NCBI GenBank assembly: GCA_016648135.1
Contig: JADDOH010023150.1
Coordinates: 1-64,000, forward strand
DNA length: 64,000 nt
Direction of reading: 5' to 3'
DNA from: Agrypnia vestita
Lineage: Eukaryota; Arthropoda; Insecta; Trichoptera; Phryganeidae
This document shows, piece after piece, positions 902-48,764 of this stretch. Positions within the stretch are counted from its first letter, which is position 1, and each line of letters starts with the position of its first letter. A program made the position numbers and the translations under genes. The notes beneath the pieces were generated by a model that was not told the DNA's origin, did not search any database, and saw nothing but the letters and a program-made list of their open reading frames with translations.

Positions 902-943
902 AGCCTTGACAATGACACGTGATACCGTGTCGAAACGTCGGCT
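902..943 (+). ncRNA. degenerate hammerhead ribozyme (HHR1)
   Basis: Stem I is AGCC (902-905) with GGCT (940-943). The first core box reads TTGACAA where CTGANGA is expected, so C3 and G8 are changed. Stem II is a perfect GACACG/CGTGTC hairpin with loop TGATAC. GAAACGTC follows and would place cleavage after 939. All helices survive but the catalytic box is mutated, so this is probably an inactive relic of a Penelope-like element. Confidence 0.55.
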
Positions 944-1470
944 TCTCAGGGAGACCATCTACCGAAAATGCGAGATATTCCAGAATCTACTTTTGTTACA
1001 TATATATACATACTAGGATTAAGATAAAAATAAGTTTGTGGAGGGAAAACAAAGATTCAATTATTTTGCAAAGCCTCTAATAAAATGCTGGGAGTGTCCA
1101 AGAAGGAAATGTGACTTGTTACCTGCTGGGTCCTAAAGAATAAGTTTGCAAAATTTTGGTCAGATCAGACAAACGGTGTAGATTTATACAGAAAATATAT
1201 TAGAAGAGGAAGTAAGGTAAAGGAAGAGGAGAGAAATGTCGCTTATGTTACCCGCCAAGTCCTAAAGAATAAGTATGCAAAATTTGAGTCAGATCGGTCG
1301 AACGATACAGATTTGCATGGAAAATATATCACTTGATGGGGGAGGGGATAGAGGAGAAGGGTGAAAATGTTGCCTCTGTTACCCGCCGGATCCTAAAGAA
1401 TAAGTATGCTAAACTTGGGTCAGATCGGACAGACGGTGTGGATTTGTATAGAGAACAGGCAGTCATTAAG

Positions 1471-3814
1471 TTTTATAGGTATAGATAGACAGCGTGTGTT
1501 GCTTTTACGTCCGCTGATGGCGCTTTTTTGGTATTCTTATAAATATTTTGTCTCATACCAATATAAAGGTAGTTAAGTTTTTAAACAACTGCCGCATGGC
1601 ATAGGGAATACAATGATTAACGAACTGGCTCAATCTACTTGATGATCTTTTCAGAAATTATAACGATATCAAAAAAATGTTTTTTTGGTATCGTTATAAA
1701 TATATTAACTAACAGAATATTTCTATATTGTATGAGATTGTATCGTAATACATTTCATACACAAAATATTTAATAGAAGTAAGTTTTTTATAGGTTTTCT
1801 GATCATCATCGAAGAAATATTTCGTAAAATTATTATATTACTGGAAATTTTTTTCAGAAAAGGCTTTCCTGTGAAATCAAAAAAAGTCAATTTTCATGAC
1901 ATCCTTAACAAAAGACGGAGTTTCTGTCGAAATTAACCACTTTAACTGATCACTTCTGAATTTTAAGAATACACTTAATATAAATAAACATCAGCCATTT
2001 TTGTCATTGGTAAAAGGTTAATCATTTAAAACGTCGCTCACTATTTTTTATTTAGCAATTTTGATTTTTGCGCCTCGGAATTCATTCTGAATTTGAGAAC
2101 CAAAAAGTGTATTTTATAAATTAATAATTAAAATGCCAACTACTTACTGTGTTTCTACAATGAACCCACTTTATTTTAAAATCGTAGAAGGATATTGTTT
2201 TGTGTTTAATGTTTCAATGAAGAATATTTAAGGTGTGAATCAAAGATATCTCGGAATAATGTCGTTTAAAACGATAAGCTCGGAAGTTCACCGAATGTAA
2301 TCAAAAAATTTGAAGTCCGAAAATGTTAGGTACCTATCTATACCTTGCAACGTGAGAACTTTCTCTGAAAGAATTTCACTTTACCGACTGGCTCAGCAGA
2401 ATCACATGAACTCCAGACGAATTCTTTACTACCTTATTCGCTGTACCATGTCTTTCTAGTTTAGATTTTACAGTTATCTGCAGGTGGGAAAGGTTGATTA
2501 GTTAAAAGAAATTTCAGTTAACAATTTCGTATATTACAGTAAAATAGACAAGGTTACACAACAGGTTGTCAAATTCATTCAAAAAAATATCAAGTATTCA
2601 CTGATTATTTGAGATATAATGAATCAATAAAATAGTAAAATGAAATGTTATATAAAAGCAGTATCAAATGAAATACTAAATTCACTGATAATCTTCTGTA
2701 TTACCTATTCAGGAAATAAATTGTGAAATGTAAATGTGATAGAATTTACTTCAACTACAAAATATAAATAAAAAGCAATATTTCCATATTTGGTTTCATA
2801 ATGGGTAGGATTTACACTGTGAAACTGAGAAAAAGAGTTTTAATCATTACTCCCATACTGGGTTTTGCAAAAGGTAGAATTTACACCATTAAATATAAAA
2901 AAATGATTTACCTTCTGAAATATCACATTCACCGCAATTGACATGTCAAAATTTAGTACTTTGAGGTTATCTGTACGCAATTAGCAAGTTCCTCGATCTT
3001 TCAGAAGATAAATTTGTATTAAATATCACGTGGACAAAATAGAATGTTGGAACAATAAGGCACAATTTTAGCATACAATCACATTCAAAAAGTTTAAAGT
3101 CTGTTTGGTGGCTCCGAAGAAGCGTCAACTTTAGATTACGTCGTCAATATCCCGTCCAAATGCAACTTCAATATGGAATTTCAGTATGACATCAGAGTTT
3201 AGAAAGGATAATTAGAGATAACCGTTGCATCTGGATATATCCTTTGGCGTGAATCGTACTTGGGTGCATCTATTTGAACATCAGACTTGAATAGACATCA
3301 GAAATTGATACTCTGCGGCCTCAATGTAACCCAGAGATAATGGTTTTTATTGTGATGGATCCATTCACATGTAAAAGAGATTGTACGCGCCCTACAAGGG
3401 TAGCGTGTAAATTAGCATTGTCCTATGCATGACTAATTTTATCAAGCATGAATGATATCATGCGTAGCAGTATAAAGGTCCTGTTTATATAAAATTTGAC
3501 TTAAAAAGTTAGAATCCTAACAATACGTGTAAAATCTGTACTTACCGGTACGCCAAATAATCTCGGACGCAAACCGGACCCTTTTAATGATCACATTTTG
3601 AAGAATGAAATAAAAATACCTGCGCAAGGCGTCTGCTGTCACTTTTATAAGCTTAGATAACGACGCGTCGCAACCACAGATTACGGCTACACCTGGGCAC
3701 GGGCAGTGCTGTCGTCCACCACGCGAGCGATAGCTTAAGTACCTACTTCGCATTACAATTATTTTCATGGCGCGTATTTCACTGAATTTTACTACGTAAC
3801 AATCTATAAAACTC
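1471..3814. other. AT-rich interior of the inverted-repeat element
   Basis: About 2.3 kb between the two arms. The longest open stretch (3517-3816, minus, 99 codons) matches nothing I recognise and has no coding-like composition. I see no transposase or helicase motif. Confidence 0.5.
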
Positions 3815-4345
3815 AATTCTGTCTGTCTGTCTGTTCTCTAATCAAATCCACACCGTTTGTCTGATTCGATTCAAATTTTGCATATTATACTTTGAGACCC
3901 GGCGGGTAACATAGGCAACATTTCCCCCTATTCTCATACCCCTTCCCCTCCCCCTGACATATTTTCGATGCAAATCTGTACCGTTTGACCGATCGGACTC
4001 AAAATTTGGAAACATATTATTTGAGACCCGGCGGGTAACAAATGCAACATTTCCCTCTATTCTCATACCCCTTCCCCTCCACCTGACACGTTTTCGATGC
4101 AAATCTGTATCGTTTGATCGATCGGACTCAAAATTTGGAAACCTTCCTTTCCCCCTTCCTCCCCCCCTATTTACTTGGGAGCAAATATAGGCCACATTTG
4201 CCCCTCTGGAAATCCTATACTTCCCTGCCTAGATTAACTGAGAACATTTTTTTTACAGAACAGTTTTTTTAGAAGCTTTTCGGAACAAAGGAACCTTTGT
4301 TTTACCTCACAAACTTATTTTTAACTTAATCCTTGACCCGTGTAA

Positions 4346-4365
4346 CGCCGGGTACAAACAGCTAG
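4346..4365 (+). repeat. Helitron-like 3' terminus
   Basis: A short ACCCG/CGGGT hairpin is followed by AAACAG and CTAG, with T as the next base. A hairpin close to a terminal CTRR followed by T is the standard Helitron 3' signature. The same ending, with different hairpins, occurs in the composite repeats at 24.96, 53.29, 54.19 and 61.06 kb. Confidence 0.5.
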
Positions 4366-4366
4366 T

Positions 4367-6350
4367 TATACATAGAATATACTTTTACAATTTGTGATAT
4401 CTACACCTATTACATGTCGAGAAATATGTTTAATACATTTCATTATCATAATTATTTTTTTGTTATTTTTCTACGATAAATTGAATTTTATGACTTAAAT
4501 GGGGGATCGTTAAATTGTTTTCACAACTAAGTATTCTGTAAAGCATTAATAAAGTGAATTTACTTTAGAAGCAAATTATCTCTTCATTAGTCCTCTTAGT
4601 GAAGAGATAAATCGCTTCCCTTGACCCACTTGTATTTGTTTGCTTGGTTATTGTTGGTATTATTAGTAAAAAATATAGGAGCGCTCACTTCTTTATGATA
4701 TCACAATATAGGGAATAAATAAATACAACCTAAGCATCTAAATATTAATCAGTTTTACCATTTCAAAAAAATCTTACATCGCCATCGGGTAAAAAGCATA
4801 TTTTGTAATATAAATAACCTTTGAAATATAAATAACTACGGTAATAACGTGGGTCTTTAACAACATCTTTGTAATATAAATAACTACGATAATAACGTAA
4901 GGCTTTAATAAAATAAATTTATATTTTAATTGACAATTTTTTTGGTTTAGAATCACGAAATATAATATTTTTAAATATTATATTTATCTATTAATAAAAT
5001 AAATACATATTATATTTATAAATATTATATCAATCTCTGTCAGTGATTGTGTGACTTACTAACTAAAAATTTATGATTATGATGAAAATCATAAATTTCG
5101 AGTTCAACACTAAAGCCTGTGATCTATTTCGGAAACCTCCGCTTCCTTCTTCATTTTATTTCATAATTTTTTTTTAATGATAGTAAATTTTAAACATTAC
5201 CTTTTTACGTTCTTATAATTTCGATGACTGACATGCATAAATACATATTTTCCATCAAAATAATAAGAAAAACTTCTTCATGTAATTAGTAAGTAGGTAA
5301 AATATTTAATTTTGTATTTAAGCCATGACCAAGTTATTCTATGAAGGCTTTCATTGCAAGGATTTACAGCTTATTCCTTTACCCTTGAGCATGGCGGACT
5401 GAAAACCTTTAATTTGCTTAAAATATTGGCAACCTTATAAGGGCAGAATAGTTAAGTAATTGAAAAGTCCTTTTCTTTATAAAAAAGAACGGTGTTTTCT
5501 GTATCACTTGGCAATGTAAGGCAAGACGTCTAAATACAAAAGGTCAAACGAGGCTTTCAAAGATGCCTTTTTGAGGAACCCAAAGACCAAGGCACAAGGA
5601 AAATCTCATAAATTTGTGAAAGCTCCCCCGGCGGAAGCTATTATTGTTTTACAGGGTTTAAGCTGTAATTGCGTTAACATTTACTTCTAAGGGATATATT
5701 GTGATTACCCCCTTACATGGGAAACTAAGCCTTATCTGAGCTGTTTTACAACATACGTAAAAAAGAAGATTCATATATGCGTAGGTTATAAAAATCTCGT
5801 CATTTAAATAATTTAATAATATCACATATTATATATATGAACTTTGATAAAATAAATGTAATGATGAACAAGCGTATACTTATATACATATGTAACAATT
5901 TTGATAGAAGACAATCCTGTGGAAAGAGCGAAGGAGTATGATTATTTCGGTCCATTTACCACGAACCATAACAGCTACAACTGAGATTTCTAAAAATAAT
6001 TGCAAACAAAAGATTGATTGAAATAAGTAGGGGACGACCTAAACAAATTATTTAAATTACGTACAATTTAACATGTCGGTAATTAATAAGTTAATTTTTT
6101 AATACAGCAATATATTCAATCATAATTGTTGTTTTTCTTATTACAACATATATCGTGTGTCTGTAGCCGAGCGTTCGTTCACGTTTGAACTCCGGATGTA
6201 CGCCGCGTCAAGTGTGTTCATGTATACCTAACATTACGTACGCGCAGCGAGTTCAGCAGGGGTAATACCAAAATTAAATGTCATCGAATAACCGACAGAA
6301 ATATGCGATGGTTTGTGAATTGTGAATCAATTTGTTCATTTTTATTTATT
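4367..6350. other. non-coding AT-rich stretch
   Basis: No protein, RNA or transposon is recognised. A local tandem duplication of about 48 bp (ATATAAATAACTACG units) lies at roughly 4803-4912. A slightly GC-richer patch at 6160-6300 has several CpGs but no defined promoter. Confidence 0.4.
4803..4912. repeat. short tandem duplication, about 48-bp unit
   Basis: AATATAAATAACTACG followed by GTAATAACGT or ATAATAACGT occurs twice, with a third partial copy upstream. This repeat keeps a 60-codon minus-strand frame open; it is not a gene. Confidence 0.6.
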
Positions 6351-6402: not shown

Positions 6403-6865
6403 TTGTACATGTGTGGCCAAATATTTTGCCTAATATATTATCTTTACAATCGTCTTCTCGTTAGTACGTTGCTCAAGCTTCTCAACAAAATGTCCACGGA
6501 CATTTGGACCAACGACAAAAGGCCCACGCGACAATAGATGGACGAAATATCAATAAAATAAATAATGAAAGAGCTTTAAGTAAATTAGTGACGAAATTAT
6601 TGAATATATTCATTCACAAATTCTTAAAAAAAAATAGGCGATCAAATCAACGTACGAAAATATTAAGTTGTTAACAACTCGGCAACAGATAGTTGTAATA
6701 AGAAAAACAAATAATTTTTATGGCGAACTAAAGGTACCGAAAATACCGAGTCTCCTAAGCAAGCTGTTAAAAAATGAAACTAACAAAAATAAAGTGAATA
6801 AAATACTTATGAGTTTACTATTGTGAAATTTAAATAACTTTGTATTGGCCACTTGGAGTAACTCT

Positions 6866-6903
6866 GTCTACCGGTTTCGGTACCACTATATCTTCGTCAG
6901 GAC
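6866..6903 (-). ncRNA. hammerhead ribozyme, left inverted copy (HHR2)
   Basis: On the minus strand: GTC, CTGACGA, stem II GATAT/GTACC with loop AGTG (one mismatch and one wobble), GAAACCGGTA, then GAC. Stem I is GTC/GAC. Stem III is the palindrome ACCGGT, which cannot close a loop alone but can pair in a dimer. Core boxes are intact. HHR5 is the inverted partner. Confidence 0.7.
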
Positions 6904-6995
6904 GGACGCATACTAACTATCCATTACTTATTCATGTAAAAATCATTAAAATAAAACACAAATCACTTTGTTTTCACCACTTTATTAGATTATAC

Positions 6996-7036
6996 AATCT
7001 ACATGTCTCGAGAACAATGTTCTCTTCATCAGGATT
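6996..7036 (-). ncRNA. hammerhead ribozyme, one core change (HHR3)
   Basis: Minus strand: AATC, CTGATGA, stem II GAGAAC/GTTCTC with loop ATT, then GAGAC where GAAAC is expected, ACATGT and GATT. Stem I AATC/GATT and stem II are perfect. One core A to G change probably kills it. It is a duplicate of HHR4. Confidence 0.72.
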
Positions 7037-7346: not shown

Positions 7347-7387
7347 AATCTACATGTTTCGAGAACAATGTTCTCTTCATCAGGATT
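7347..7387 (-). ncRNA. intact hammerhead ribozyme (HHR4)
   Basis: Minus strand: stem I AATC/GATT, core CTGATGA, stem II GAGAAC/GTTCTC with loop ATT, core GAAAC, palindromic stem III ACATGT, cleavage predicted after the following A. All invariant positions I can check are present. The GIY-YIG fragment upstream is on the same strand. Confidence 0.82.
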
Positions 7388-7493
7388 ATTGTGTATTATA
7401 TTTAATTAATATTAACATTTCCTTATTTCAAGTATTTCTAAATTATTTATTTGTGGGATCTTATAACTAATATGTAAAATTTTTTAAACGTGT

Positions 7494-7692
7494 ATTAATT
7501 TTAAATGGTCATATTCAATTAAGTGTTTTGCAAAATCCGACTCAACATTGCTAGTTAAAACTTTGATGTGTTCTTTAAACCTAGTTTCATTTTTTTTTTG
7601 TTTTACCAATATATAAATGATCACAATCGTTACAATTAAGTTTATAAAATCCTGATTTCATGATAGGATCATCGCTGTCTTTGTCACTTAAT
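7494..7692 (-). pseudogene. Penelope-like GIY-YIG endonuclease fragment
   Basis: Read on the minus strand, a cysteine pair (CNDCDHLYIGKT) precedes the YIG motif. After a poly-A frameshift the frame continues TRFKEHIKVLTS and then FAKHLIEYDH. This is the layout of the C-terminal GIY-YIG nuclease of Penelope-like retroelements, which nicks target DNA for integration. No reverse transcriptase domain is present. The 1-nt shift in an A run marks it as a pseudogene. HHR3 and HHR4 lie downstream on the same strand. Confidence 0.72.
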
Positions 7693-7844
7693 AAAGTGGT
7701 GAAAACATAGTGATTTGTGTTTTATTTTAATAATAATGTCACCACAAAGTTCAAGCCTTCTTTTAGAAGAAAAAATATTCTTCGAACAATTAAAAAAATC
7801 AATTTTTGTCTGCTAGAATAAGTAATGAATAGTTTGAATGCGTC

Positions 7845-7884
7845 CGTCCTGACGAAGATACAGTGGTATCTAAACCGGTAGACG
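7845..7884 (+). ncRNA. hammerhead ribozyme, right inverted copy (HHR5)
   Basis: Stem I CGTC/GACG; core CTGACGA; perfect stem II GATAC/GTATC with loop AGTG; then TAAAC instead of GAAAC; palindromic ACCGGT. The single G to T change in the second box probably inactivates it. Inverted partner of HHR2. Confidence 0.68.
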
Positions 7885-8254: not shown

Positions 8255-8696
8255 TGAAATATAAAACAAGAGAATGGCTGCTCACGGCAGAAATACAAGA
8301 CGTGCTAAAAATCAAGCTTGGATTGTTTCGAGAGTAACAAACAAGTATGGAATGAAAACACTAGAATATTTGGTGCCCGTGCTATTGAATGAACTGCAAG
8401 GCCCCTTTCCAGCATGCCTCGGTGGTGGAATTCAGAAGGTGGTTGATGTCAAACGACATGGCATATCTATATATGCATATCTATATATGCCATGTCGTTT
8501 GACATCAACCACCTTCTGAATTCCACCACCGAGGCATGCTGGAAAGGGGCCTTGCAGTTCATTCAATAGCACGCGCACCAAATATTCTAGTGTTCTCATT
8601 CCATACTTGTTTGTTACTCTCGAAACAATCCAAGCTCGATTTTTAGCACGTCTTGTATTTCTGCCGTGAGCAGCCATTCTCTTGTTTTATATTTCA
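8255..8696. repeat. 442-bp near-perfect palindrome of a LINE tail
   Basis: Two arms of 221 bp meet at 8475/8476 without a spacer. I count about five mismatched pairs, two of them near the centre. Each arm reads the same peptide from its outer end: MAAHGRNTRR, then a VTNKYGMKTLEYLV-like stretch ending VLLNEL. That pattern (NTR, YG, SL/TL, Y, P, LWN/LLN) resembles the extreme C-terminus of CR1/L2-type reverse transcriptases. So this is probably an inverted duplication of a LINE fragment rather than two genes. A transcript would form a long hairpin. Confidence 0.85.
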
Positions 8697-12660: not shown

Positions 12661-12721
12661 TTATAATTTCAAATATGTTTTATTATACTTTGTAATACAC
12701 ACACAATATGAGTTATTAAAT

Positions 12722-12766
12722 TACAACTATAGTTTCGAGAGGAGCAGACCCTCTCATCATCAGGTA
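12722..12766 (-). ncRNA. intact hammerhead ribozyme (HHR6)
   Basis: Minus strand: short stem I TAC/GTA, core CTGATGA, stem II GAGAGG/CCTCTC with 7-nt loop, core GAAAC, and the self-complementary ACTATAGT as stem III. Invariant core bases are all present. The short stem I makes solo activity uncertain. Confidence 0.75.
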
Positions 12767-12865
12767 TAGATAATAACTAACTTAAATACAAAATTTATCA
12801 ATCTAATTGGGTAGGTCAGGGGGTCAGGGGGGCGCGCGGCAGGGAAGGGTATTTTTTTAGTAGGC

Positions 12866-13124
12866 CAGACCACTAGAAACACGCATAAAAGAACATCGCC
12901 GCTGCTTAAAAAATAACAATTTCTCCGAATTTGCCAATCATATAATTAACACCAATCATTCTTTCGATAGTCACAAATTAAAATTACTCCACTCGGTTCC
13001 TCATAGACGATGGATAATGAATAGTTTGGAAACCGTTGAAATCCTAAAAAATTTAAATTCTGGAAACACATTAATAAATAATATCACATTTCAGTCCAGT
13101 TCACCACTAATAAAACATATTTGA
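12866..13124 (+). pseudogene. Penelope-like GIY-YIG C-terminal fragment
   Basis: The frame reads RPLETRIKEHRRCLKNNN, then SEFANHIINTNHSF, and later RRWIMNSLETVEI, ending at a TGA. These are landmarks of the PLE GIY-YIG domain after the catalytic tyrosines (TRxKEH, a later H, then the glutamate region). A GQT-coding triplet set lies just upstream in another frame, so the join is frameshifted. The N-terminal part and the reverse transcriptase are missing. Confidence 0.75.
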
Positions 13125-23435: not shown

Positions 23436-23477
23436 TCTCGACGTTTCGCTGATGTTTTATTCAGCATCATCAGGAGA
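23436..23477 (-). ncRNA. complete hammerhead ribozyme (HHR7)
   Basis: Minus strand: TCTC, CTGATGA, T, stem II GCTGA/TCAGC with an 8-nt loop, GAAACGTC, then GAGA. Stem I TCTC/GAGA pairs perfectly across the predicted cleavage after GTC. Core boxes are intact. Flanks (TACGAACCCTATATTTT) resemble those of HHR12, so both come from one Penelope-like family. No protein fragment lies alongside. Confidence 0.85.
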
Positions 23478-24147: not shown

Positions 24148-24546
24148 AACCGAACAAATGGGGGTACATGTATGTACAAATATAACACGATCCTGGTCGA
24201 CAGTAATCGAACAAATGGGGGTACATGTATATACAAATATAACACGATCCTGGTCGACAGTAACCGAACAAATGGGGGTATATGTATGTACAAATATAAC
24301 ACGATCCTGGTCGACAGTAACCGAACAAATGGGGGTACATGTATGTACAAATATAACACGATCCTGGTCGACAGTAACCGAACAAATGGGGGTACATGTA
24401 TATACAAATATAACACGATCCTGGTCGACAGTAACCGAACAAATGGGGGTACATGTATATACAAATATAACACGTTCCTGGTCGACAGTAACCGAACAAA
24501 TGGGGGTACATGTATATACAAATATAACACGATCCTGGTCGACAGT
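24148..24546. repeat. minisatellite, seven 57-bp units
   Basis: Exactly 399 bp, seven copies of a 57-bp unit beginning AACCGAACAAATGGGGGTAC. Copies differ at a few positions (TATG/TATA; CGATCC/CGTTCC). Because 57 is divisible by 3 and the unit lacks stops in several frames, long frames appear on both strands (up to 252 codons). They encode 19-residue periodic peptides such as ICSVTVDQDRVIFVYTCTP. I regard them as non-coding. Confidence 0.95.
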
Positions 24547-24599
24547 AACTTGCGTTTGACGAAGACTGTCCTTCAAAATTGCGGCTCCTCGGGTGACTG

Positions 24600-25799: not shown

Positions 25800-26940
25800 T
25801 ATTAATTCAATTTAATTCAATTCAATTCAATTTATTTCACGATAATATGTACATGACAAACAAAATGTTTAAGGCATACATATTAGGAAGTATATATCAA
25901 AAATGAAAGTATTTAATAAATTAAAAATAACATAAAATCTGGTCAAAGGTGTAGGAGAATCCCGCTTCGGAAAACCCCCTCAGACACATGGAATATATCA
26001 ATACCCAAAGCAATTTTGTTCAGCATAGCTGTGGCTCTTCCAACAGGCATAACCATCGGCAGGTTGGTCCTGTATATTGGAATGTGAAACAATCTATGCT
26101 GACGATGTCTAGTGTAATTATCAGGAACATACAAACCAATGCTCTGCATAATTTCAGGATTATCGATCATACCGCGCAACAATCGATAAAAATGTGTAAT
26201 CAAATACACATTCCTTCTAGTCTCTAAATACCTTGCCTTCCTCCTAACCCCTCTGTGTTTTCATTCTTTCCGCACCAATTGTTCTTGTCCGTCATCTCTC
26301 CAATGTCTTTCAACCATTATTTTCATGTTTTCGACTATTGTAGCCCAGCATACCCTGGAGAAACTCGGTTGGGTAAAGCCAAGGATAATGCCCGTACTCT
26401 CTCATGTAGAGATATCTCAGAAACTTCTTTTGGACTTTCTCCACCATAAGAGAGTACTTGCCCTCATGTGGCCCCCAGATCATCGAGCCACTCTCGAGTC
26501 TACTCAGCACCAAGGAGTTGTAAAGAGTTCTGAGTACGCGGGTATTCTCGAAAACCCTGGCAGTACGCAGAACAAATCCTAACATTCTCAAAGCATTACC
26601 ACTGATCGTCTCTATGTGATCGTGAAATGTTAGGTTGCTTACAAATCTAACACCTAGATCTTTAACATTTGATGTTCTTGTCAGATTTTGATCGTTCATT
26701 TTGTAGCGAAAAAATAGAGTTTTTTGGGCCCTAGTGAAGGATGTAACCGAACACTTGGAAACATTAAACAAAAGTTTATTTCGTCTTCCCCATTCACATA
26801 TATTTGATATATCTGCTTGGAGAAGACGAAAATCGTCCAAAGTTGATACCTTTAAGAAAAGCTTTAAGTCATCCGCAAATAACAGAAAGCGCGAGTTTAA
26901 GATTACATTTTTTATATTATTAATAAAAATCGAAAATTAA
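25800..26940 (-). pseudogene. Jockey-like LINE reverse transcriptase, 3' half
   Basis: On the minus strand the frame enters as FINNIKNVILNSRFLLFADD (the palm motif with catalytic aspartates), continues through SKCSVTSFTR, a DLGVRF thumb start, NSLVLSRLESGSMIWGP, then after a frame break LLRGMIDNPEIM and LGRATAMLNK. That order is typical of Jockey/CR1-type LINEs. The fingers and endonuclease are missing. At the 3' side (25800-25845) is an AATAAA-like site and a (TTGAA)n tail. At least one frameshift near 26.2-26.3 kb. Confidence 0.85.
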
Positions 26941-27213: not shown

Positions 27214-28108
27214 TTGCTCGCCAACAATTGATCGCCCATAATTGTTTGCCAGGAAAGTTGCTCGACAACGATTGATCGCCCACAGTTGCTAGCCCATATT
27301 TGTTCGCCAGGAAAGTTGCTCGCCACCGATTGCTCGCCAGCAGATATTAATTTCAAATTTTATGAAAAATTATATTACATATAGGGTTTTGAAGGTTTTT
27401 TATAGACGACTAAGAAACCATCAAACATTGTAAATGTTGGCATTATTCCCTCACTGAACTAATTGGTGCACAGCATTCAGCGATGCGGACGTTCATCACC
27501 GCATTAAAAAGTGAACAAAGCGTGATGTTCGGATAAATAGAACAAACAATACATAAGCGGCCGTGATCCTAATATGTCATTCACTGTGCCGTAATCACCT
27601 ATTAATGTTTTTAATTGGAGGTAAGACACACTATGCTCATACATTATAATGTTTAAAAAGTGTTAAGATTCCTTATTAAATAAATAAAAATAAAAATAAT
27701 ATAAATAAATGCCAAGAAAAAATATCGTGACTGTGTGAAAAGGATATAAATAATTATTGTTAACGATTACCCAAATAGAACATTGATCGAATTTCTGCGT
27801 GGCATAGCTCAAAGTATCACCCTGACATGCAATTGGTGAGCAATTTTCCTGGCTAGCGATGTGGGCGAGCAACTATGGGTGAGCAATCTTCCTGGCTAGC
27901 GATGTGGGCGAGCAACTATGGGTGAGCAATGTTCCTGGCTAGCGATGTGGGCGAGCAACTATGGGTGAGCAATGTTCCTGGCTAGCGATGTGGGCGAGCA
28001 ACTATGGGTGAGCAATGTTCCTGGCTAGCGATGTGGGCGAGCAACTATGGGTGAGCAATTTTCCTGGCTAGCGATGTGGGCGAGCAACTATGGGTGAGCA
28101 ATTTTCCT
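27214..28108. mobile_element. foldback-like element with tandem-repeat inverted ends
   Basis: The left end (27214-27343) holds imperfect repeats of TTGCTCGCC, GATCGCCC and GCCAGGAAAGTTGCTCG. The right end (27834-28108) is about 6.4 copies of a 43-bp unit (GGGTGAGCAA...GGCGAGCAACTAT), roughly inverted relative to the left. The middle (about 490 bp) is AT-rich and non-coding. TIRs made of direct repeats are the hallmark of foldback (FB) transposons. The right array is much more homogeneous than the left. Confidence 0.75.
27834..28108. repeat. 43-bp tandem array
   Basis: Unit starts at 27877, 27920, 27963, 28006, 28049 and 28092 (last partial), with a first copy from 27835. Units vary mainly at the base after GAGCAAT (T, C or G). 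Right arm of the foldback-like element. Confidence 0.95.
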
Positions 28109-29575: not shown

Positions 29576-31114
29576 AAGAATGGTAAGGCTGTGTGGGGTA
29601 TGATAACGTTGCTGCCGAATATATCAAGGCTGGTGGCCCATCAGTGATTTCGTGGCTTTATACTCTATTTAATAAATGTTTGAAGGAGAGCCACACCCCT
29701 TTGGTTTGGAGGAGAGCAGTAATCATGCCTCTCTACAAAGGTAAAGGGTCGAGATTGGAATGCGGGAACTACAGGGCAATCAGCCTTTTAAGCTCGGTTG
29801 GCAAACTTTATGGAAGAATTTTGATAGAAAGAGTAAGGTCGATGACGAAAGAAAAGGTATGGGACGTGCAAGGAGCATTTGTGGGTGGAAGAGGATGCAT
29901 GGATCAGATATTCTCTCTACGAGTGTTGACGGAAAAGTTTTTAGCGAAAAACCAAAAACTTTTCTGTGCATTTGTAGATCTGCAAAAGGCTTATGATAGG
30001 GTTATTAGAGGAAGGTTATGGAAGGTACTCTCTGATTACAAGGTGAACAGTAAACTTATAGACGCAGTTGCATCCCTTTACGAGGGGAGTACTGCGTGTG
30101 TAAGAATCAATGGATCTTTCACACCGTGGTTTGATATAACAAAAGGTGTCAAACAGGGTTGTGTAATGTCTCCATGGCTGTTCAACTTGTATATGGATAA
30201 TTGTGTGAAAGAACTGGAATGTATGAATATAGGAGCGAAAATGAGTGATTTGATTGTATGCTGTTTACTGTACGCGGATGATGCGGTATTAATGGCAAAT
30301 AGCGAACAAGACCTACAAAGTCTAGTTAGCAGGATGTATGATGTATGCAAGGAAAGTGACCTTATTATGAATGGAAAGAAGTCAAAAGTAATGGTATTCG
30401 AGAAGGAGGAAAGTAAGACAACGTGTGAAATACTAGTAGGCAATGAATGTTTGGAACAAGTAGATGAGTTTGTGTACTTGGGAAGTATGTTCGATAGAAG
30501 AGGGAATGTTGAGAAAGATATCGAGAGGAGAGTGACTGCCGGGAATAGGGTGAACGGTGCTTTGAATGCAATAATTTCTAATAGAAATATGTCTACCGAG
30601 GCAAAACTAGCGGTACATAATGGAGTTCTGGTACCGACACTAATGTATGAAAGTGAAGCCTGGAGCTGGCAGAAGAGGAACGAAAGTAGATTGAATGCAG
30701 TGGAGATGAGGTCCCTTAGACGTATGTGTGGTAAATCCATGTATGATAGAGTAAAGAATGAAGAGATTAGGAATGAATGTAAAGCTGATCGTAGCATAAT
30801 ACAGAGAATAAAAATAGGGTCGCTCAGGTGGTTTGGGCATGTTGAGCGAATGAATGAGGAAAGAATGGTAAGAAAGATATATGATGCAAGTGTTAACGGC
30901 GCCAGAAAAAGAGGGCGACCACGGAAGACGTGGCATGACCAGATTAACCAGATACTGGAAGATGGTCCTGTTAGAAGTCTGAACAACCGTCGAGCTTGCA
31001 TGCGAAGATGTATGAATGTAGACGAAGCGAAAGTTGTATGTCAGGACAGAAGAGCATGGCGCTCTATCCTCTCTGCCTACCCCCTCGGGGAAACGGCGTG
31101 ATGGTAAGTAAGTA
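29565..31114 (+). CDS. RTE-like non-LTR reverse transcriptase, 5'-truncated
   Basis: A 502-codon open frame (29593-31101) encodes the reverse transcriptase that copies LINE RNA at a nicked target. Counting from MGYDNV, motifs are: GNYRAISLLS near 58-67 (fingers), DQIFSLR 104-110, FVDLQKAYD 127-135 with catalytic D129, GVKQGCVMSPWLF 185-197, and LLYADDAVLMA 225-235 with D229/D230. A thumb-like EFVYLGSMFD, YESEAW, WFGHVERM and a basic ARKRGRPRKTW follow. The first Met is not native: the frame continues upstream as MKNGKAV after a 1-nt shift near 29598. The endonuclease domain is absent. It ends in GTAAGTAAGTAAG, a tail usual for RTE-type LINEs. The antisense frames are shadows. Confidence 0.9.
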
Positions 31115-35171: not shown

Positions 35172-35582
35172 TAAATTTACATAAAACATTTGTATGTGAT
35201 GCGTGGTTATAGGTTCTTGCATAAATTAGGTGTTATAATGAAAAAGAGGAAGGAACCTTACCAAAGAAACCAATAAGGCGACTTGGGTAATTTGAGATCT
35301 GGATCTATGCAAGAATGCTCAAAAGGAGCTTAATGGATAGAATTACCAAAGGGGTGAATTTAAATCTCCCCGGTGGTAATTTCCTTTATCTATATTTTTA
35401 GAATAAACAGTAGTAGCTATCTTTGGTTCTAGGTACTGTTTATTCGTACATATAAAGTCGTGTATAAATGATTACGTTTTTGATTTTATTATTAATATTA
35501 TTAATATTTAAAGCATTAACTTTGTGGTTAGACATTATAACAGAATGTTAGTTAACTTAATAAAAACCACTACCAGATTTAA

Positions 35583-35624
35583 GGTCTACCGGTTTCGAGA
35601 CGTACCCGTCTCTTCGTCAGGACC
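35583..35624 (-). ncRNA. complete hammerhead ribozyme (HHR8)
   Basis: Minus strand: GGTC, CTGACGA, stem II GAGACG/CGTCTC with loop GGTA, GAAACCGGTA, GACC. Stem I GGTC/GACC is perfect and stem III is the palindrome ACCGGT; predicted cleavage after the A preceding GACC. All core positions intact. Confidence 0.87.
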
Positions 35625-35983
35625 AACACTACACTACTATATTCACAACACTATACACCCCAACCATAGTATTGTTAAACTTTCACCAATATTGATCACA
35701 TGCGTGTTAATCTTGTCAGAGACAAACATGCACTGTTCATGTTTGTGTTTCTATCATCACAGTGCACTTTTGTGTCTGACAAGATTAACACGCATGTGAT
35801 CAATATTGGTGAAAGTTTATGTTCATGTTTGTGTTTCTGTCATAACAGTGCACGTTTGTGTTTCTGCCATAACAGTGCACGTTTGTCTCTGACAAGATTA
35901 ACACGCATGTGATCAATATTGGTGAAAGTTTAACAATACTATGGTTGGGGTGTATAGTGTTGTGATTATAGTAGTGTAGTGTT

Positions 35984-36025
35984 GGTCCGGACGAAGAGAC
36001 GGGTACGTCTCAAAACCGGTACATC
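35984..36025 (+). ncRNA. mutated inverted copy of HHR8 (HHR9)
   Basis: GGTC, then CGGACGA (one change from CTGACGA), perfect stem II GAGACG/CGTCTC with loop GGTA, then AAAAC for GAAAC, ACCGGT. Two core substitutions suggest it is inactive. It lies in the opposite arm of the palindrome. Confidence 0.7.
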
Positions 36026-36074
36026 TTAAATCTGGTAGTGGTTTTTACTAAGTTAACTAACATTCTGTTATGTT

Positions 36075-36499
36075 TTTGATTCTTTTTAGCAATCTCAATT
36101 AATCTCTAAATCGAAATTGCAATACATGTACATTGTATAGATACTTACCTCGACTAAATATTTGAAATTTATCTCATCGTATTTCATCTCGTGGCAATAG
36201 CAACGAGTTTCAAAAGATATTCATCGTATGTTCAACAACCCCTATTCCTAATGAAATGACCCGTTTCAACTGATGTAAAATATTAACATCAAAATTTTAA
36301 ATTAAATATGTGGCTCTTATAACATATTTAGGCTTACCTATAATTCTCTAATGAAACTCTAACTGAGACAAATATTAAATCTTCCGTATTTATTAATATT
36401 CACTTTCATGTATTTATAAATAGAAAACACTGTGTATAAAACCACTATTTATTGAATAAAAGGATACAACACAAATTTTTTTCCAACTGTCGGTCTATC
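36075..36499. other. no gene recognised
   Basis: AT-rich spacer. Confidence 0.35.
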
Positions 36500-36812: not shown

Positions 36813-36860
36813 AAATATAAATGATAAAAATATTGTTGTAAAACTAAATGAGAGTTTATA

Positions 36861-37795: not shown

Positions 37796-37796
37796 A

Positions 37797-38698: not shown

Positions 38699-38835
38699 AC
38701 TATATACATACTAACACCTACTAAAATAATAATTTCTCCCTCCCAATATTAGGCCAGCGTATTACACTAATATTAACATAGGTGCATTAACCCTCAATTC
38801 ATTGTCAAAATATAAATAATTTAGAACAAAACAGA

Positions 38836-39033
38836 GTTTATGAAATTTCATGCGGAGTTTGTAATATTAAATACATCGGTCAATCTTTCAGAAATCTCAA
38901 CATGAGATTTATAGTCAAACTAACTAATCAGTTTTCTGAATTCGCGAACCACATCATGGAAAATAATCATTATGTTCATTCTCTCCATCCCGTCGCACGT
39001 AAAGGTAATAAAATTAATCTTTTTGTAAGTTAA
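38836..39033 (+). pseudogene. Penelope-like GIY-YIG endonuclease fragment
   Basis: The frame reads VYEISCGVCNIKYIGQSFRN, an LNMRF segment, then QFSEFANHIMENNHYVH, ending at TAA. CGVCxxKYIGQ is the cysteine-containing GIY-YIG entry of Penelope-like proteins, and FANHxxxxxH is the next conserved block. About 65 codons without a stop, but no RT upstream and the right part of the domain is short. Confidence 0.8.
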
Positions 39034-39233
39034 GAAATGAAAGGAATTTGAAATTTGAAATCGGGTATTAATTTGCTTCACAATATTATTTTCATTAACT
39101 CATCTCCTCCCCTCTCAATAATCCCATTACAACCACTTTTGCACCAGTAACTCAGGTTCATTTTTTCAGTATCTAATCACATCATATTTGTAGCCAGTTT
39201 AATACTTCACCTGTCAATGAAATTTTCTAATAC

Positions 39234-39983: not shown

Positions 39984-40125
39984 AGAATCTTCAAGTTTGT
40001 GTTTACTGGGGTATTATGCCGTGTTGTTACGACCTTTCGGGCCGACGTTTCGGATCCCATTGCAGGGTCCATCATCAGGGTTGATGTGTCACACATCCCA
40101 GTAAACACAAACTTGAAGACGTCCC
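39984..40125. repeat. palindrome flanking a hammerhead
   Basis: TCTTCAAGTTTGTGTTTACT (39986 on) and its inverse AGTAAACACAAACTTGAAGA (40104 on) bracket the hammerhead HHR10. Arms are about 25 bp and match exactly. Confidence 0.85.
40042..40080 (-). ncRNA. hammerhead ribozyme (HHR10)
   Basis: Minus strand: core CTGATGA, stem II GGACCC/GGG-A-TCC with one bulged A and loop TGCAAT, then GAAACGTC and GGCC. Stem I is only CC/GG. Core boxes intact; weak stem I and bulge make activity uncertain. Confidence 0.68.
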
Positions 40126-43896: not shown

Positions 43897-44712
43897 GTCG
43901 TATTCCGAAAATAGCAATATAGGATTTTAAGATTGTTATCCCAACTCTTAATAGACGAGAATAGAAAGAAAAAATAAATAAGACGTAGAATCGGTGTTCG
44001 GTGTTAGTCGTACTGAAATAAGGAGATCGGTATATTTTTACATAACTCTCTCAAAGTAAATACCTTACATTATTATACTTAATACATACATAGTATACTT
44101 AATACAAAATTAAGTATACCCTGACGAAGGAACGTCGTTTCCAAAACCGGTTGGTTTTACCAAATAAATTTTAGTGGTGTAAACAAAGTTAATTAGTTTA
44201 ATTATATTCATAATGAATAACCACAAAGTTATAGCAAAATACAACAGTGTAAATACCTTTATTTACGGTGTCCGATGTCTGCAATGCCTTGGGAAAAGGG
44301 AATGATTTCTCCGATACCTTCTTATCTAGGCGGTCTCGTCTGATAGAGATTCAAACGGATTATCGAAGTACCTATCGCAACCGCACAATTCTCATATTTC
44401 GATTAAAATTATTTAGTCGAAATATGAGAAATGAAATAAGTAGTAATGCTGTATTTAAAGCTTATAGAAAAAAGATTATTTCATATGCACTTATGAATTT
44501 CTTCTCCCACAGTGTCCTGATGTAAAATTATGGAAAAACTGTCATTGTCGCGTCGGATTCCTATTTATATTTTGACGTTTGACGGATAACCGTCATGTAT
44601 TTCTTTCTCGCTCTCTCTTTCAAATAGAAACCGAAAGAACCAAACACCGACGTATTCCTCCTTCTCGTTAATTTTTATTCTCATCTATTAAGTGTTGGGA
44701 TAACAATGAGCC
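43897..44712. mobile_element. composite repeat with inverted ends around HHR11
   Basis: TTGTTATCCCAACTCTTAAT near 43935 is inverted at 44693 (TAAGTGTTGGGATAACAA). The left end GGTCGTATTCCG resembles the palindromic MITE at 36.50 kb. HHR11 sits inside. Probably a PLE scrap and a MITE fragment joined. Confidence 0.5.
44118..44155 (+). ncRNA. degenerate hammerhead ribozyme (HHR11)
   Basis: ACC, CTGACGA, stem II GGAAC/GTTTCC (one bulge, loop GTC), then AAAAC for GAAAC, ACCGGTT, GGT. First box intact, second box changed; stem I ACC/GGT. Probably inactive. Confidence 0.62.
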
Positions 44713-45075
44713 TTTGGCCTGCCCACACTTATATCCGAAGTTTCAACTTAGTCCCTTTTAGCCCAGTGCCTTTTAGCTCCTCTGCTACAACAGTTTTTCA
44801 CTAGGATAGATGTTTTCATAGCTTTTTAGACCACTATAAGTATAGTGGTTTCGGGTATATATATCGGGTACGAAACATATAATATGTTTCGTTTTGAAAG
44901 CAAGGGCTTTCTTATTGATCATCTTGGGATGTTTAATTTCTAATTAGATATTGACAATAAAATTAATTCTTGTCCATCTTGTTTAAGATACAATGATATC
45001 GAAAGTGGTTAACCTCAATTCAATCAAATAATTCGTAAAAAAATGTGTCATTTATATTATTGTGTTAGTTATATA

Positions 45076-45613
45076 CAGGGTTATTTGTGAAACATTAATA
45101 ACCTCGCAGTACTATATTCCTTCCTTGATTCTGAGTCGAAAATGTTCAAGCCATTATGACCTAATATCAACAGTTAAGGAGATATGCGACATCAAAGTTT
45201 GCATTTTTTTTTCAATATTTCTGACTTATTTTTTGTACAACGTTGGACTATCATTACAGTAACATATATCGAATATGAAAAATTCATTCTCTTTAATACA
45301 AGTCAAATAAAAAAATAAAAACCTTCGAATTCCAATTGGAAAACATTCCAATTGGAATTTTTTCAGGTTTTTTATCATTTAATTTAACGTGTATTGAAAC
45401 AAATAAATTTTTCGTAATCGATATGAGTTACTGTAATGATAGTCCAACGTTTTACAAAAAATAAGTCAGAAATATTGAAAAAAAATGCAAACTTTGATGT
45501 CGCATATCTCCATAACTATTGATATTAGGTCACAATAGCTTGAACATTTTCGACTCATAATCAAGGGAGGAATAAAGTCCTGCGAGGTTATTAATGTTGT
45601 ACAAATAACCCTG
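45076..45613. mobile_element. CAGGG-ended palindromic MITE, copy 2 (best)
   Basis: CAGGGTTATTTGTG at the left is inverted at the right (CAAATAACCCTG) with TATA flanking both sides. Nearly the whole 538 bp is two inverted arms (for example AAGTTTGCATTTTTTTTCAA against its inverse), centred on AATTCCAATTGGAA. Non-coding; a TA-type duplication suggests a Tc1/mariner-like driver, but this is inference. Confidence 0.85.
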
Positions 45614-45619
45614 TATATG

Positions 45620-46510: not shown

Positions 46511-46513
46511 TGG

Positions 46514-46785
46514 GTCCAATCCTAGGATTGGTCTGCAACACGCACTCGCTTTCTCCACTCCTCTCTGTCACCTGCCAGCCTCTTCATTTCTTGGTAGGTG
46601 CTACAGCGCGCATCTCCGATAATCTGATCTACGTAGCTTAATCTCAGGCGGCCTCTACGATTGTTGCCTTCAACATTTCGCTCGACGATGGTTAGAAGCA
46701 GGCCTGGATGCCTTATATTATGGCGTATCCAAATTGCTCGCTGTTGGGCGATTCTGTTAAGGAGCCGTGTCTTTTAGCCCACCCT
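46514..46785 (-). pseudogene. LINE reverse transcriptase C-terminus, twin A
   Basis: Minus strand: LNRIAQQRAIWIRHNIRHPG, then LLLTIVERNVEGNNRRGRLR, LSYVDQIIGDAR and EMKRLAGDREEWRKR, ending ADQS. This is the C-terminal tail of an RTE/CR1-type LINE (RGRxRxSYxDQ...MKRLAxDREEWR). It ends at ATCCTAGGATTGG, as does the 48.25-kb copy. Confidence 0.83.
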
Positions 46786-46789
46786 AATT

Positions 46790-47670
46790 TGGTGGGGTGA
46801 AAGAAGAAGACAGATTTGAATGATGATGTTAACATTATTGTCCAAGTCGGTCTCTCATTACTCAGGAACGTGGTCTTCATCTCCCACCCTCTTGACTATG
46901 GCCTTGTGCTTCTAGCTTTTTCAACATGGTCGGTCCAACGAGTGGAGTATCTTCCTGTTCTCTTCTGGCGATGTCTAAAAATTTGATGGATTCGTCTCAG
47001 ACAAGGGTATTTTGAGTTCTTGTAATATGGAGACATTTGTGCGTCTCGCCACATCTCAAAAACATCGATTCTCCGTCTCTTTTAAGCTTTTGTAAGCATT
47101 TTACCGGACATAAATTGCCTTTCAAATTGATCTACCCAGAACTATTTTCACCAGTGCAGTAAATCCATCGGTTGCTAAATCAGTGCACTTTTTACACGAC
47201 TCGTCTGATGTCTCGAGCCAGATTCGTGTGCTGACTGCGGCTGACTCTGCGCTCAAATAGATAAGAACATCTAGCCCAGTCGTGATGCTCAACGACTAGA
47301 AGTTTAACATTAATAAGACCGTTCATGTATTCTTTCATTTTAGTTTGGACATTTTTTTAAATATAAAAAATGCCTACATCATGAAATACTCCTTTGAAAT
47401 GTTATCTAGTTCCTATCAACAATTCCTCTATTTTTTTTTAATACATGTGCGAACTACAAACATATTTTTAAAAAGATAAGTGATAAATGAATCAGGAATA
47501 ATGTGTAACATTTGGTGCATGTATAATAATAATAATGTATTGGCTAAGGGATACTTGATATTTTGTTTCTTCATATTTCTTTCTACGTTCAGGGGTAGGG
47601 AACATGACTGTTGATAAAATTTATAAATGTGCGGCCGCACACCCGCACACCTTAGAGGGAACAATGCTTA
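46790..47670. other. no gene recognised
   Basis: AT-rich spacer. TTAGAGGGAACAATG near 47651 resembles GACCAATGTTCCCTCTA near 59223, a possible shared element end. Confidence 0.35.
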
Positions 47671-47675
47671 TTGGT

Positions 47676-48120
47676 GCCCAACGTAACTTGGCGTGCGGCG
47701 AATTTTGAACTAAAACCCGCCCCGCCCGCACCCGGCGGTAACCCCTCGCCCTGTCATTCAGTTCAATTTTGTATTTGGTCGGGAGCTGTGACATCTTGAT
47801 TACCAATATACACCGAATTATTATGTCCAAAACATGCTAAACAGTCCGGGATGGTGCAAGACAATTGCCAATGAAGTTTTAAAGTTTTGCAAAGCTGAAA
47901 AAGCGAATAATGGACCTATATTACCGTCTAACAGTTTGACAGACAGAACGGCCGCCATTACTGCACGGTTTCTTTAGTGCTGCCCGACCAAATTTGTGTA
48001 TTTAATACGACACCGGTCACCGGACATTCTGTACATTATGTATTGTGTAATAAATTTACACCCTGGCAAGTTCTGTTAGGCGATAGGGACGCCCTCCCTC
48101 GCACGCCAAGTTATAGTGGT
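47676..48120 (-). mobile_element. TIR element pair, copy Y
   Basis: Inverted homologue of 20091-20518. The left end GCCCAACGTAACTTGGCGTG and the inverse of the right end ACCACTATAACTTGGCGTGC share TAACTTGGCGTGCG, defining the TIR. The interior TGTGACATCTTGATTACCAA matches copy X. Non-coding. Confidence 0.68.
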
Positions 48121-48249
48121 ATCTATTCATCATTTTCACGGTGGTAATTCTATCCGCCATATTCTGAAATTTAGCCAATAAATCCAGCTGCGTAATTCGC
48201 AATCGTTATAATTATTAGCGATTATTTTTAGTTAGGAAGAATTTGGTTA

Positions 48250-48645
48250 AAACTCTTGTCTGGAGTGTGGCAAAGAAACATGAACCATCGGCCAGAGCAT
48301 GTCCGGGAGGTGTGGTGCTACAGGCGCCTGGCGAGGATCCATTACATGAATATCCGAATCGACGAGGTGATGAGCAGCGTGGGCGAAAAGAGGCGGCCCC
48401 TGAACAGAATTGTCCAACAACGGGATAATTGGATAAGCCATAACATAAGGCATCCAGGCCTGCTTTTTACCATCGTCGAGGGAAAGATTGAAGGTAATAA
48501 TCGTAGAGGCCGCCCGAGATCAAGCTATATAGAACAGGTTATCGGAGATGTGCGCTAACGAGAAATGAAGAGGCTGGCAGGTGACAGAGAGGAGTGGAGA
48601 GATCGAGATGCAGACCAATCCTAGGATCAATGAGTCAAGGTTGTA
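48250..48645 (+). pseudogene. LINE reverse transcriptase C-terminus, twin B
   Basis: Frames in order: EKRRPLNRIVQQRDNWISHN, IRHPGLLFTIVEGKIEGNN, RRGRPRSSYIEQVIGDVR, a stop, then EMKRLAGDREEWRDRDADQS. Same family as 46514-46785 but on the opposite strand, ending CCAATCCTAGGATC. One stop and an upstream frame change; palm motifs absent. Confidence 0.85.
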
Positions 48646-48722
48646 TTACGGTCGTTAGACATATTTAACTGTAAATGGTTTCGGATATTTTGTACGAACC
48701 ATATGTTTTTCCGAGAAACGAT

Positions 48723-48764
48723 TCTCGATGTTTCGTTGAATTCGTATTCAACGTCATCAGGAGG
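48723..48764 (-). ncRNA. hammerhead ribozyme (HHR12)
   Basis: Minus strand: CTC, CTGATGA, stem II GTTGAA/TTCAAC with loop TACGAA, GAAACATC, then GAG. Core boxes intact; stem I CTC/GAG. Its downstream flank matches that of HHR7 (TACGAACC). Confidence 0.82.

What the first reader, a model, noticed from the sequence alone, without database searches (positions are those of the whole stretch)
902..48764. Twelve hammerhead ribozyme motifs in one 48-kb stretch
CTGANGA, a hairpin and GAAA(C) recur in order at twelve places, with stem I pairing across the predicted cleavage site in most. Six have fully intact core boxes with good helices (HHR4, 6, 7, 8, 10, 12) and HHR2 has intact boxes with a weaker stem II. 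Stem II sequences differ completely between families but each pairs with itself, which is covariation, not chance. Hammerheads are known in Penelope-like retroelements, and four GIY-YIG fragments of that class lie in this window. This layer leaves no open reading frame and would be missed by protein-based annotation.
Basis: partly seen in the sequence, partly recalled or inferred. Interest (0 to 1): 0.9.

Follow-up and report, generated by a model that had tools for sequence, protein, structure and literature searches.

The report
Dimer-type ribozymes of Penelope retroelements
This stretch holds twelve hammerhead ribozyme motifs, seven with intact core letters, that likely all belong to Penelope-type jumping genes and are predicted to cut RNA in pairs; the same genome holds about 58,000 matches to this form of the motif, which has one extra core letter and which the standard ribozyme models did not find in this stretch.

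Summary
All twelve motifs are where stated (8 minus strand, 4 plus); a covariance model built without window sequences finds exactly these twelve at E <= 5.1e-4. Seven have intact core boxes, five are decayed. Four Penelope-like (PLE) GIY-YIG fragments are present. Rfam's hammerhead models report nothing even at E <= 10. The intact copies carry one extra nucleotide between A9 and stem II, and 40 of 49 exact-core copies have a self-complementary stem III: dimer-type type I hammerheads. Genome-wide, 58,243 matches have the extra nucleotide (control 176); 795 lack it (control 131). Eight different stem II sequences sit just 3' of PLE gene ends. PLE-borne dimeric hammerheads are known, so the kind is not new. 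New, as far as my searches show: an extra core nucleotide in nearly all matches of one genome, and integration evidence. PLE copies lie head-to-head with ribozymes facing outwards; 7 of 8 units carry one 12-17 bp target duplication around the whole unit, and the two arms are no more alike than random copies. That points to two RNAs per insertion. Whether the ribozyme pairs them is untested.

The parts
902..943 (+). HHR1, decayed type I hammerhead (first core box reads TTGACAA: C3 and G8 changed); stem III ACGU, H17 C
   Evidence: R2 E 1.4e-5; sequence
6865..6904 (-). HHR2, intact core boxes, weak stem II, stem III ACCGGU; a diverged relative of HHR5
6996..7036 (-). HHR3, GAAA changed to GAGA, otherwise near-identical to HHR4
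7347..7387 (-). HHR4, intact, stem III ACAUGU; 35 bp 3' of the PLE fragment 7418-7718
   Evidence: E 2.1e-13
7845..7884 (+). HHR5, GAAA changed to TAAA; stem III ACCGGU
12721..12767 (-). HHR6, intact, stem III ACUAUAGU; lies in the inverted 5' arm of a PLE copy of the L020/L041 family
23436..23477 (-). HHR7, intact, stem III ACGU
35583..35624 (-). HHR8, intact, stem III ACCGGU; clearest predicted double hammerhead as a dimer
   Evidence: E 3.6e-13
35984..36025 (+). HHR9, decayed inverted partner of HHR8 (core boxes CGGACGA and AAAA)
   Evidence: (E 5.1e-4)
40040..40082 (-). HHR10, intact boxes, stem III ACGU; largest stem II family in the typed genome sample
44117..44156 (+). HHR11, GAAA changed to AAAA; stem III ACCGGU
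48723..48764 (-). HHR12, intact boxes, extra nucleotide C, stem III ACAU (not self-complementary); 346 bp 3' of the end of the PLE fragment 49106-49237
7418..7718 (-). PLE linker and GIY-YIG fragment, broken
   Evidence: tblastn with the L020 PLE protein, E 3e-9
12821..13112 (+). PLE GIY-YIG fragment, 95% identical to the L020 protein, internally deleted (piece 12821-12859 alone is weak, E 0.32)
   Evidence: E 2e-45; sequence
38736..39120 (+). PLE GIY-YIG fragment; no ribozyme found on the same strand within 3 kb
   Evidence: E 7e-19
49106..49237 (-). PLE GIY-YIG fragment
   Evidence: E 2e-5
35486..36071 (.). Head-to-head palindromic unit holding HHR8 (-) and HHR9 (+) facing outwards, no coding part found; likely non-autonomous PLE derivative
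   Evidence: inverted repeat 35537-36071; edges and flanking repeat
35476..35485 (.). Left copy of the 10-bp direct repeat GTTTTTGATT (likely target-site duplication)
36072..36081 (.). Right copy of GTTTTTGATT, abutting the right edge of the unit

Best explanation
The twelve motifs (seven with intact core boxes, five decayed) are copies of a type I hammerhead ribozyme with one extra core nucleotide and mostly a self-complementary stem III; it sits just 3' of Penelope-like retroelement genes in several families and is predicted to self-cleave as a dimer. SHOWN by sequence and calls: (1) the core order CTGANGA-N-stem II-GAA-A...U-H-stem I, with stems I and II changing together between families; (2) the extra nucleotide in the intact window copies and in nearly all genome matches; (3) a self-complementary stem III in most exact-core copies; (4) the ribozyme 35-363 bp downstream of PLE gene ends on the same strand in 8 of 12 PLE fragments, with eight different stem II sequences; (5) in the best-sampled family, copies arranged head-to-head with ribozymes outwards, mostly with one target duplication per unit, and with arms that match different source copies. 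INFERRED: two PLE RNAs pair through stem III, two hammerhead cores form across the pair, and each can cut at H17. The protein likely brings two RNAs to one target and primes a cDNA on each DNA strand (twin target-primed reverse transcription), which gives the head-to-head units. In the sampled units the cDNAs start about 20-105 nt 3' of the predicted cleavage site, so those templates were uncleaved there; cleavage would then trim or regulate other transcripts rather than make the integration template.
For: Model without window sequences finds the twelve. Covariation: score 0.765 against 0.187 shuffled and at most 0.159 slid (rows pre-filtered for pairing); 99 unfiltered matches pair best in the one-insert register, 3.39 of 4 against 2.23 and 1.69. 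58,243 matches with the insert, control 176; 795 without, control 131. Self-complementary stem III in 40 of 49 against 95 of 575 control sites. Same-strand ribozyme downstream in 8 of 12 PLE fragments. PLE frames with RT and GIY-YIG. Head-to-head: 11 of 13 same-family neighbours and 10 of 12 neighbouring PLE copies (hand count). Single 12-17 bp duplication in 7 of 8 units, at most 10 bp in 56 controls. Arm divergence within and between pairs both 0.57%; partner strictly nearest for 0 of 18 arms. A PLE in vitro cleaves and extends both strands, starts inside the RNA, and does not need ribozyme cleavage (PMC11167929, passages).
Against: No cleavage was tested. Rfam models do not match. The in vitro PLE hammerhead cut only with protein, and no RNA-seq reads began or ended at its cut site (PMC11167929). 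In RNAcofold only 5 of 18 best dimers pair stem III between strands with stem II intact, 3 of them with stem I too (my reading). HHR12 has a non-palindromic stem III and C as extra nucleotide, which is harmful in a viroid hammerhead. 9 of 49 exact-core copies lack a self-complementary stem III. HHR families of 35620 and 44121 were not seen beside a PLE gene in what I held. Four of 12 PLE fragments have no ribozyme downstream; eight of the 12 lie in loci fetched because they hold ribozymes. One of 8 units has no target duplication.
Confidence: 0.8

Rival explanations
1. Chance hairpins: CTGANGA and GAAA are short, and AT-rich DNA full of inverted repeats yields hammerhead look-alikes to the eye.
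For: The loose motif alone is only twice the shuffled number, and 8 of 100 shuffles reach it. Rfam is silent.
Against: Full motif 4 against 0.013; twelve hits with a model from other loci; 58,243 genome matches against 176.
Confidence: 0.01
2. The motifs are a conserved RNA-pairing or protein-binding structure that no longer cuts: the hammerhead fold is kept as a landing or dimer site, not as an enzyme.
For: Integrated templates were uncut at this site (positions). In vitro, the ribozyme mutants inserted as well as wild type (PMC11167929). The extra nucleotide lowers the rate in a viroid hammerhead (PMC3705267).
Against: The catalytic letters are the same in the aligned families while stem letters differ, more than a mere pairing site needs; alignment rows were chosen for exact cores, which weakens this.
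Confidence: 0.2
3. They are metazoan retrozymes: small non-autonomous tandem-repeat elements that make circular RNAs.
For: Type I hammerheads in non-coding units such as 35486-36071; one same-strand pair 351 bp apart (HHR3/HHR4).
Against: No tandem array overlaps any of the twelve; eight stem II sequences sit beside PLE genes.
Confidence: 0.07
4. Head-to-head units arise from one template, by self-priming on an antisense RNA, as inferred for rotifer Penelope elements.
For: Published inference from palindromes at the inverted junctions (PMC3846280, passage). A jump between a sense RNA and an antisense RNA of another copy would also give two unlike arms and is not excluded here.
Against: Partner strictly nearest for 0 of 18 arms, tied for 1; divergence 0.57% within and between pairs; discordance at shared sites 16 against 16.24 for random re-pairing. 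In the 7 units with a duplication both outer edges fall at preferred positions, 177-187 and 219-235.
Confidence: 0.15

Closest known systems
Small hammerhead variants of Penelope-like retrotransposons that cleave as dimers (Lunse, Weinberg and Breaker 2017; Cervera and De la Pena 2014). Neither paper is held; seen only as citations and descriptions in PMC7761336 and reference lists of PMC11014351 and PMC10085705
   Same: Type I, reduced stem III, in PLE pseudo-LTRs, thousands of copies in animal genomes, said to act as dimers.
   Different: The extra nucleotide after A9 in nearly all matches; I could not check whether those papers report it.
Hammerhead of the Anolis PLE Poseidon (PAc), PMC11167929 (passages)
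   Same: PLE hammerhead without a stem III in the description; element inserts from uncut RNA; both target strands cut and extended.
   Different: There it overlaps the start of the ORF in tandem copies; in the copies read here it lies 3' of the ORF and copies are mostly head-to-head.
Plus-strand hammerhead of chrysanthemum chlorotic mottle viroid, PMC3705267 (passages)
   Same: One extra nucleotide between A9 and G10.1; U faster and G or C harmful fits the rarity of G here.
   Different: A viroid, unrelated context; C is common in one family here.
Endonuclease-bearing Penelope elements of the rotifer Adineta vaga, PMC3846280 (passages)
   Same: Head-to-head inverted pseudo-LTRs, 8-10 bp duplications, a tail on one arm.
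   Different: No hammerhead is named in that text (0 occurrences), and one self-primed template is inferred; arms here fit two templates.
Metazoan retrozymes, PMC7229834 (passages)
   Same: Type I hammerheads in animal retroelements; some need dimers.
   Different: Those are short tandem repeats; no ribozyme here lies in a tandem array.

Membership tests
Type I hammerhead ribozyme | Conserved boxes CUGANGA and GAAA with A15.1-U16.1 and H17 | tested here: met
   7 of 12 window copies have both boxes exact; alignment of 18 exact-core representatives
Type I hammerhead ribozyme | Stems I and II around the core, stem I open | tested here: met
   Covariation
Type I hammerhead ribozyme | Stem II directly after A9 (no insert) | tested here: not met
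   One extra nucleotide; inserts of one or two nucleotides are known in hammerhead alignments (PMC10085705), so this marks a variant, not an exclusion
Type I hammerhead ribozyme | Match to Rfam hammerhead models | tested here: not met
   No hit at E <= 10
Type I hammerhead ribozyme | Self-cleavage at H17 | not testable with these tools
   Needs bench work
PLE-borne minimal (dimer-type) hammerhead | Reduced, self-complementary stem III | tested here: met
   40 of 49 exact-core copies; 95 of 575 control sites
PLE-borne minimal (dimer-type) hammerhead | Location next to PLE genes | tested here: met
   8 of 12 PLE fragments; 2 of 4 in the window
PLE-borne minimal (dimer-type) hammerhead | Faster cleavage as a dimer | not testable with these tools
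   RNAcofold is only a hint: 5 of 18
Penelope-like element (EN-bearing) | One ORF with RT and C-terminal GIY-YIG | tested here: met
   L041: RVT_1 1.3e-10, GIY-YIG 1.6e-5
Penelope-like element (EN-bearing) | Inverted pseudo-LTRs, short target duplication, tail on one arm | tested here: met
   7 of 8 units, compared with PMC3846280
Metazoan retrozyme | Ribozyme inside short tandem repeats (about 170-400 nt) | tested here: not met
   No array overlaps any of the twelve; HHR3/HHR4 are one same-strand pair 351 bp apart

The most novel reading that the evidence does not exclude
Penelope retroelements are functionally diploid: each insertion event copies two different RNAs, one from each strand of the break, and the hammerhead's palindromic stem III is the dimer linkage that brings the two RNAs together, the ribozyme working as a pairing device and check rather than as a plain cutter.
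Probability: 0.3. Interest if true: 0.88.

Novelty: new variant of a known kind. Interest (0 to 1): 0.62.

Why it matters
The role of PLE hammerheads is called still a mystery (PMC7761336, passage). This genome offers tens of thousands of natural copies in many stem II families that share an unusual core, which Rfam's models missed wherever I ran them, so counts based on those models may be too low. The head-to-head units with unlike arms and single target duplications make a concrete question testable: does a PLE particle carry two RNAs, and does the ribozyme pair them?

Tried and rejected
Rfam at gathering and relaxed thresholds gave no hammerhead, so I built my own models. The loose motif alone is weak (7 against 3.44) and was dropped for full-motif and model tests. 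The first impression that all copies lie on one strand was wrong: four are on the plus strand once decayed cores are allowed. Genome-wide counts by identity of the extra nucleotide could not be run because the genome search stayed busy; I used 99 typed matches and the bound. The PDB sequence search with the PLE protein found nothing. Target-duplication search on nine ribozyme pairs of mixed families gave 4 of 9 at 10 bp or more against 1 of 72 controls, that one being 14 bp; the other 5 of 9 gave 8 bp or less. In the template test, 13 columns had a minor allele in two or more sequences; I dropped 7 of them (columns 96-118, at the ragged alignment start) and used 6. All 9 pairs differ at one of the six at least, but L044/L045 only by a base seen in no other copy. 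Unit C3429 has no duplication and C4071 has no left flank; both stay in the template test.
Full report
OBSERVATION. The loose motif CTGANGA-N4..30-GAAA occurs seven times, all on the minus strand, against 3.44 expected. Asking for stem I, stem II and stem III pairing together gives 4 places against a mean of 0.013 in 300 first-order Markov shuffles. Rfam 15 reports no hammerhead in the window at gathering score or at E <= 10, nor in three genome loci that hold the motif. I therefore built covariance models from aligned family representatives. R2, made from 14 sequences outside the window (some of them of the window's own stem II families), finds exactly twelve places in the window at E 2.1e-13 to 5.1e-4, the same twelve as R1; a thirteenth at 5121-5153 is borderline.

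ANATOMY. Each intact copy reads stem I - CTGANGA - one extra nucleotide - stem II - GAA - A...U - H17 - stem I. For HHR2, whose stem II is weak, the register follows its relative HHR5. Across 20 representatives the paired positions of stems I and II change together; on 18 of the 20 (two near-duplicates of the HHR8 family left out) the covariation score is 0.765 against 0.187 in shuffles and at most 0.159 in slid controls. These rows had been filtered for at least two stem I pairs and a stem II score of at least four, so I also tested 99 matches typed from the listing, which fixes only the first stem II pair: mean pairing of the next four is 3.39 in the one-insert register, 2.23 with no insert and 1.69 with two. 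They fall into about 26 rough clusters, and cluster heads pair 85 of 104 times against a shuffled mean of 45 and maximum of 68. Stem III is short and usually self-complementary (ACGU, ACCGGU, ACAUGU, ACUAGU, ACUAUAGU): 40 of 49 exact-core copies against 95 of 575 control GAAAC sites; HHR12 is an exception. In RNAcofold all 18 representatives gain from dimerising (1.9 to 11.5 kcal/mol), but by my reading only 5 of the 18 best dimers pair stem III between strands with stem II intact, and 3 of these form stem I as well; HHR8 is the clearest.

EXTRA NUCLEOTIDE. In the window's 1.32-Gb assembly the pattern with the insert, CTGANGANG-N8..20-CGAAAC, has 58,243 matches, its reversed control 176. Without the insert there are 795, control 131, and several of the listed ones pair only in the one-insert register (the extra nucleotide being G). 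In held sequence 49 of 50 exact-core copies with a good stem II have one extra nucleotide and one was scored with two, but most of that sequence was fetched with the one-insert pattern. The insert is A 47, T 40, C 10, G 2 in the 99 typed matches. A viroid hammerhead with an extra A at this place is known; there U is faster and C or G strongly harmful (PMC3705267, passages). Rarity of G fits that; the C family does not. Known hammerhead alignments hold inserts of at most one or two nucleotides beside the CUGAnGA box (PMC10085705, passage).

HOST ELEMENT. L020 holds an open PLE frame from the RT motif YVDD to GIY-YIG (PF01541 7.2e-6), with a ribozyme of HHR6's family 68 bp after it and an inverted copy of the same 3' end, ribozyme included, at its 5' truncation. 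L041 holds a 718-aa open frame with RVT_1 and GIY-YIG and the ribozyme 43 nt after it. Where a source names an organism among its listed relatives it is an insect, such as Euphydryas, Parnassius, Phthorimaea, Cacopsylla and Diabrotica. With the L020 protein, four PLE fragments are found in the window and eight more in held loci, some weak (E up to 0.007). 8 of these 12 have a ribozyme 35-363 bp downstream on the same strand, with eight different stem II sequences; the exceptions are L012, L023 and two in the window (12821-13112, 38736-39120). The genome loci were fetched because they hold ribozymes, so only the window's 2 of 4 is unselected. The L020 PLE family is young: 120 matches from 119 scored of 33,903 first-look candidates, nearly all listed above 90% identity, with open frames up to 777 aa.

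HEAD-TO-HEAD UNITS. Among neighbouring R2 hits (the 56 plus HHR9) of one family within 2 kb, 11 of 13 are minus-then-plus, ribozymes outwards; for unlike families 3 of 12. Regions were not chosen blind. Among PLE copies, counted by hand from the list, neighbours within 5 kb are minus-plus 10, minus-minus 1, plus-plus 1, plus-minus 0 (the two rows of C6390 taken as one copy). For eight such units I fetched both outer flanks: 7 of 8 have a 12-17 bp direct repeat around the whole unit, against a maximum of 10 bp in 56 cross-pairings; in each of the 7 one arm ends short (outward position 177-187) and the other long (219-235). The window unit 35486-36071 has the 10-bp repeat GTTTTTGATT abutting its right edge and ending 52 bp left of the shared left edge. 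Such a unit is most simply one integration event. Yet the arms are unlike: over nine units the partner is the strictly nearest of 20 other copies for 0 of 18 arms and tied for 1; mean divergence is 0.57% within and 0.57% between pairs; at six sites where variants are shared between copies, discordances are 16 against 16.24 for random re-pairing. The sites were chosen on the same sequences, seven edge columns were dropped, and the set is small.

MECHANISM. Shown: structure, abundance, PLE linkage, head-to-head units, unlike arms. Inferred: two RNAs per event and twin priming. This fits an in vitro PLE that cleaves and extends both strands, starts reverse transcription inside the RNA, is predicted to be a protein dimer, and does not need ribozyme cleavage (PMC11167929, passages). 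Against plain self-cleavage, that ribozyme cut only with protein, and its authors found no reads at the cut site. Head-to-head order, short target duplications and the one-armed tail are known for rotifer Penelope elements, where self-priming on an antisense template was inferred (PMC3846280, passages); unlike arms speak against a single template, but a jump between a sense and an antisense RNA of different copies is not excluded. The further step, that stem III pairs the two RNAs, rests on geometry alone. In L020 and the seven units the cDNA starts lie about 20-105 nt 3' of the predicted cut (worked out by hand), so the integrated templates were uncut there.

COMPARISON AND NOVELTY. PLE-borne minimal type I hammerheads acting as dimers are described (Cervera and De la Pena 2014; Lunse et al. 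2017; neither held; seen through PMC7761336, and reference lists). I could not check whether the extra nucleotide is reported there. My paper searches listed nothing that by title or start of abstract reports two RNA templates per PLE insertion or stem III as a dimer linkage; that library holds only openly licensed papers. Motif numbering and the canonical spacing (stem II directly after A9) are recalled, supported. I file the finding as a new variant of a known kind.

Noticed in passing
window 29593-31098 (+) and 26316-26936 (-): An open 502-aa LINE reverse transcriptase (RVT_1 5.4e-34) whose best named relatives are mostly Lepidoptera (about 55-59% identity), and a fragment of a second RT (RVT_1 below its cut-off).
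   Followed up: partly
window 5121-5153 (-): Borderline thirteenth hammerhead-like place (E 0.014 and 0.045), with a self-pairing stem II but a changed first core box.
   Followed up: partly
window 55444-56108: tRNA-like sequences (RF00005, 55516-55588 minus and 55901-55973 plus) inside repeats 99-100% alike: likely a young tRNA-derived SINE that is itself palindromic.
   Followed up: no
window 8255-8696 and 45071-45618: Long near-perfect inverted repeats (97.7% over 442 bp and 87.5% over 552 bp); the second family recurs near 36850, 49950, 57000 and 61150.
   Followed up: no
window 1106-1435 and 3891-4142: Arrays of a 129-bp unit in opposite orientations; they hold no ribozyme.
   Followed up: no
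window 24148-24549 and 27835-28108: Tandem arrays of 57 bp (7.1 copies) and 43 bp (6.4 copies).
   Followed up: no
L025 (G000:C4:444000-453999): Matching motif places in mirrored order across about 9 kb (hits near 379/2060 plus, 8619 minus and further places in the list), suggesting a large inverted duplication.
   Followed up: no
L061-L076: In all 7 units with a target duplication one arm ends short and the other long; why the two strands start at different sites is unexplained.
   Followed up: partly
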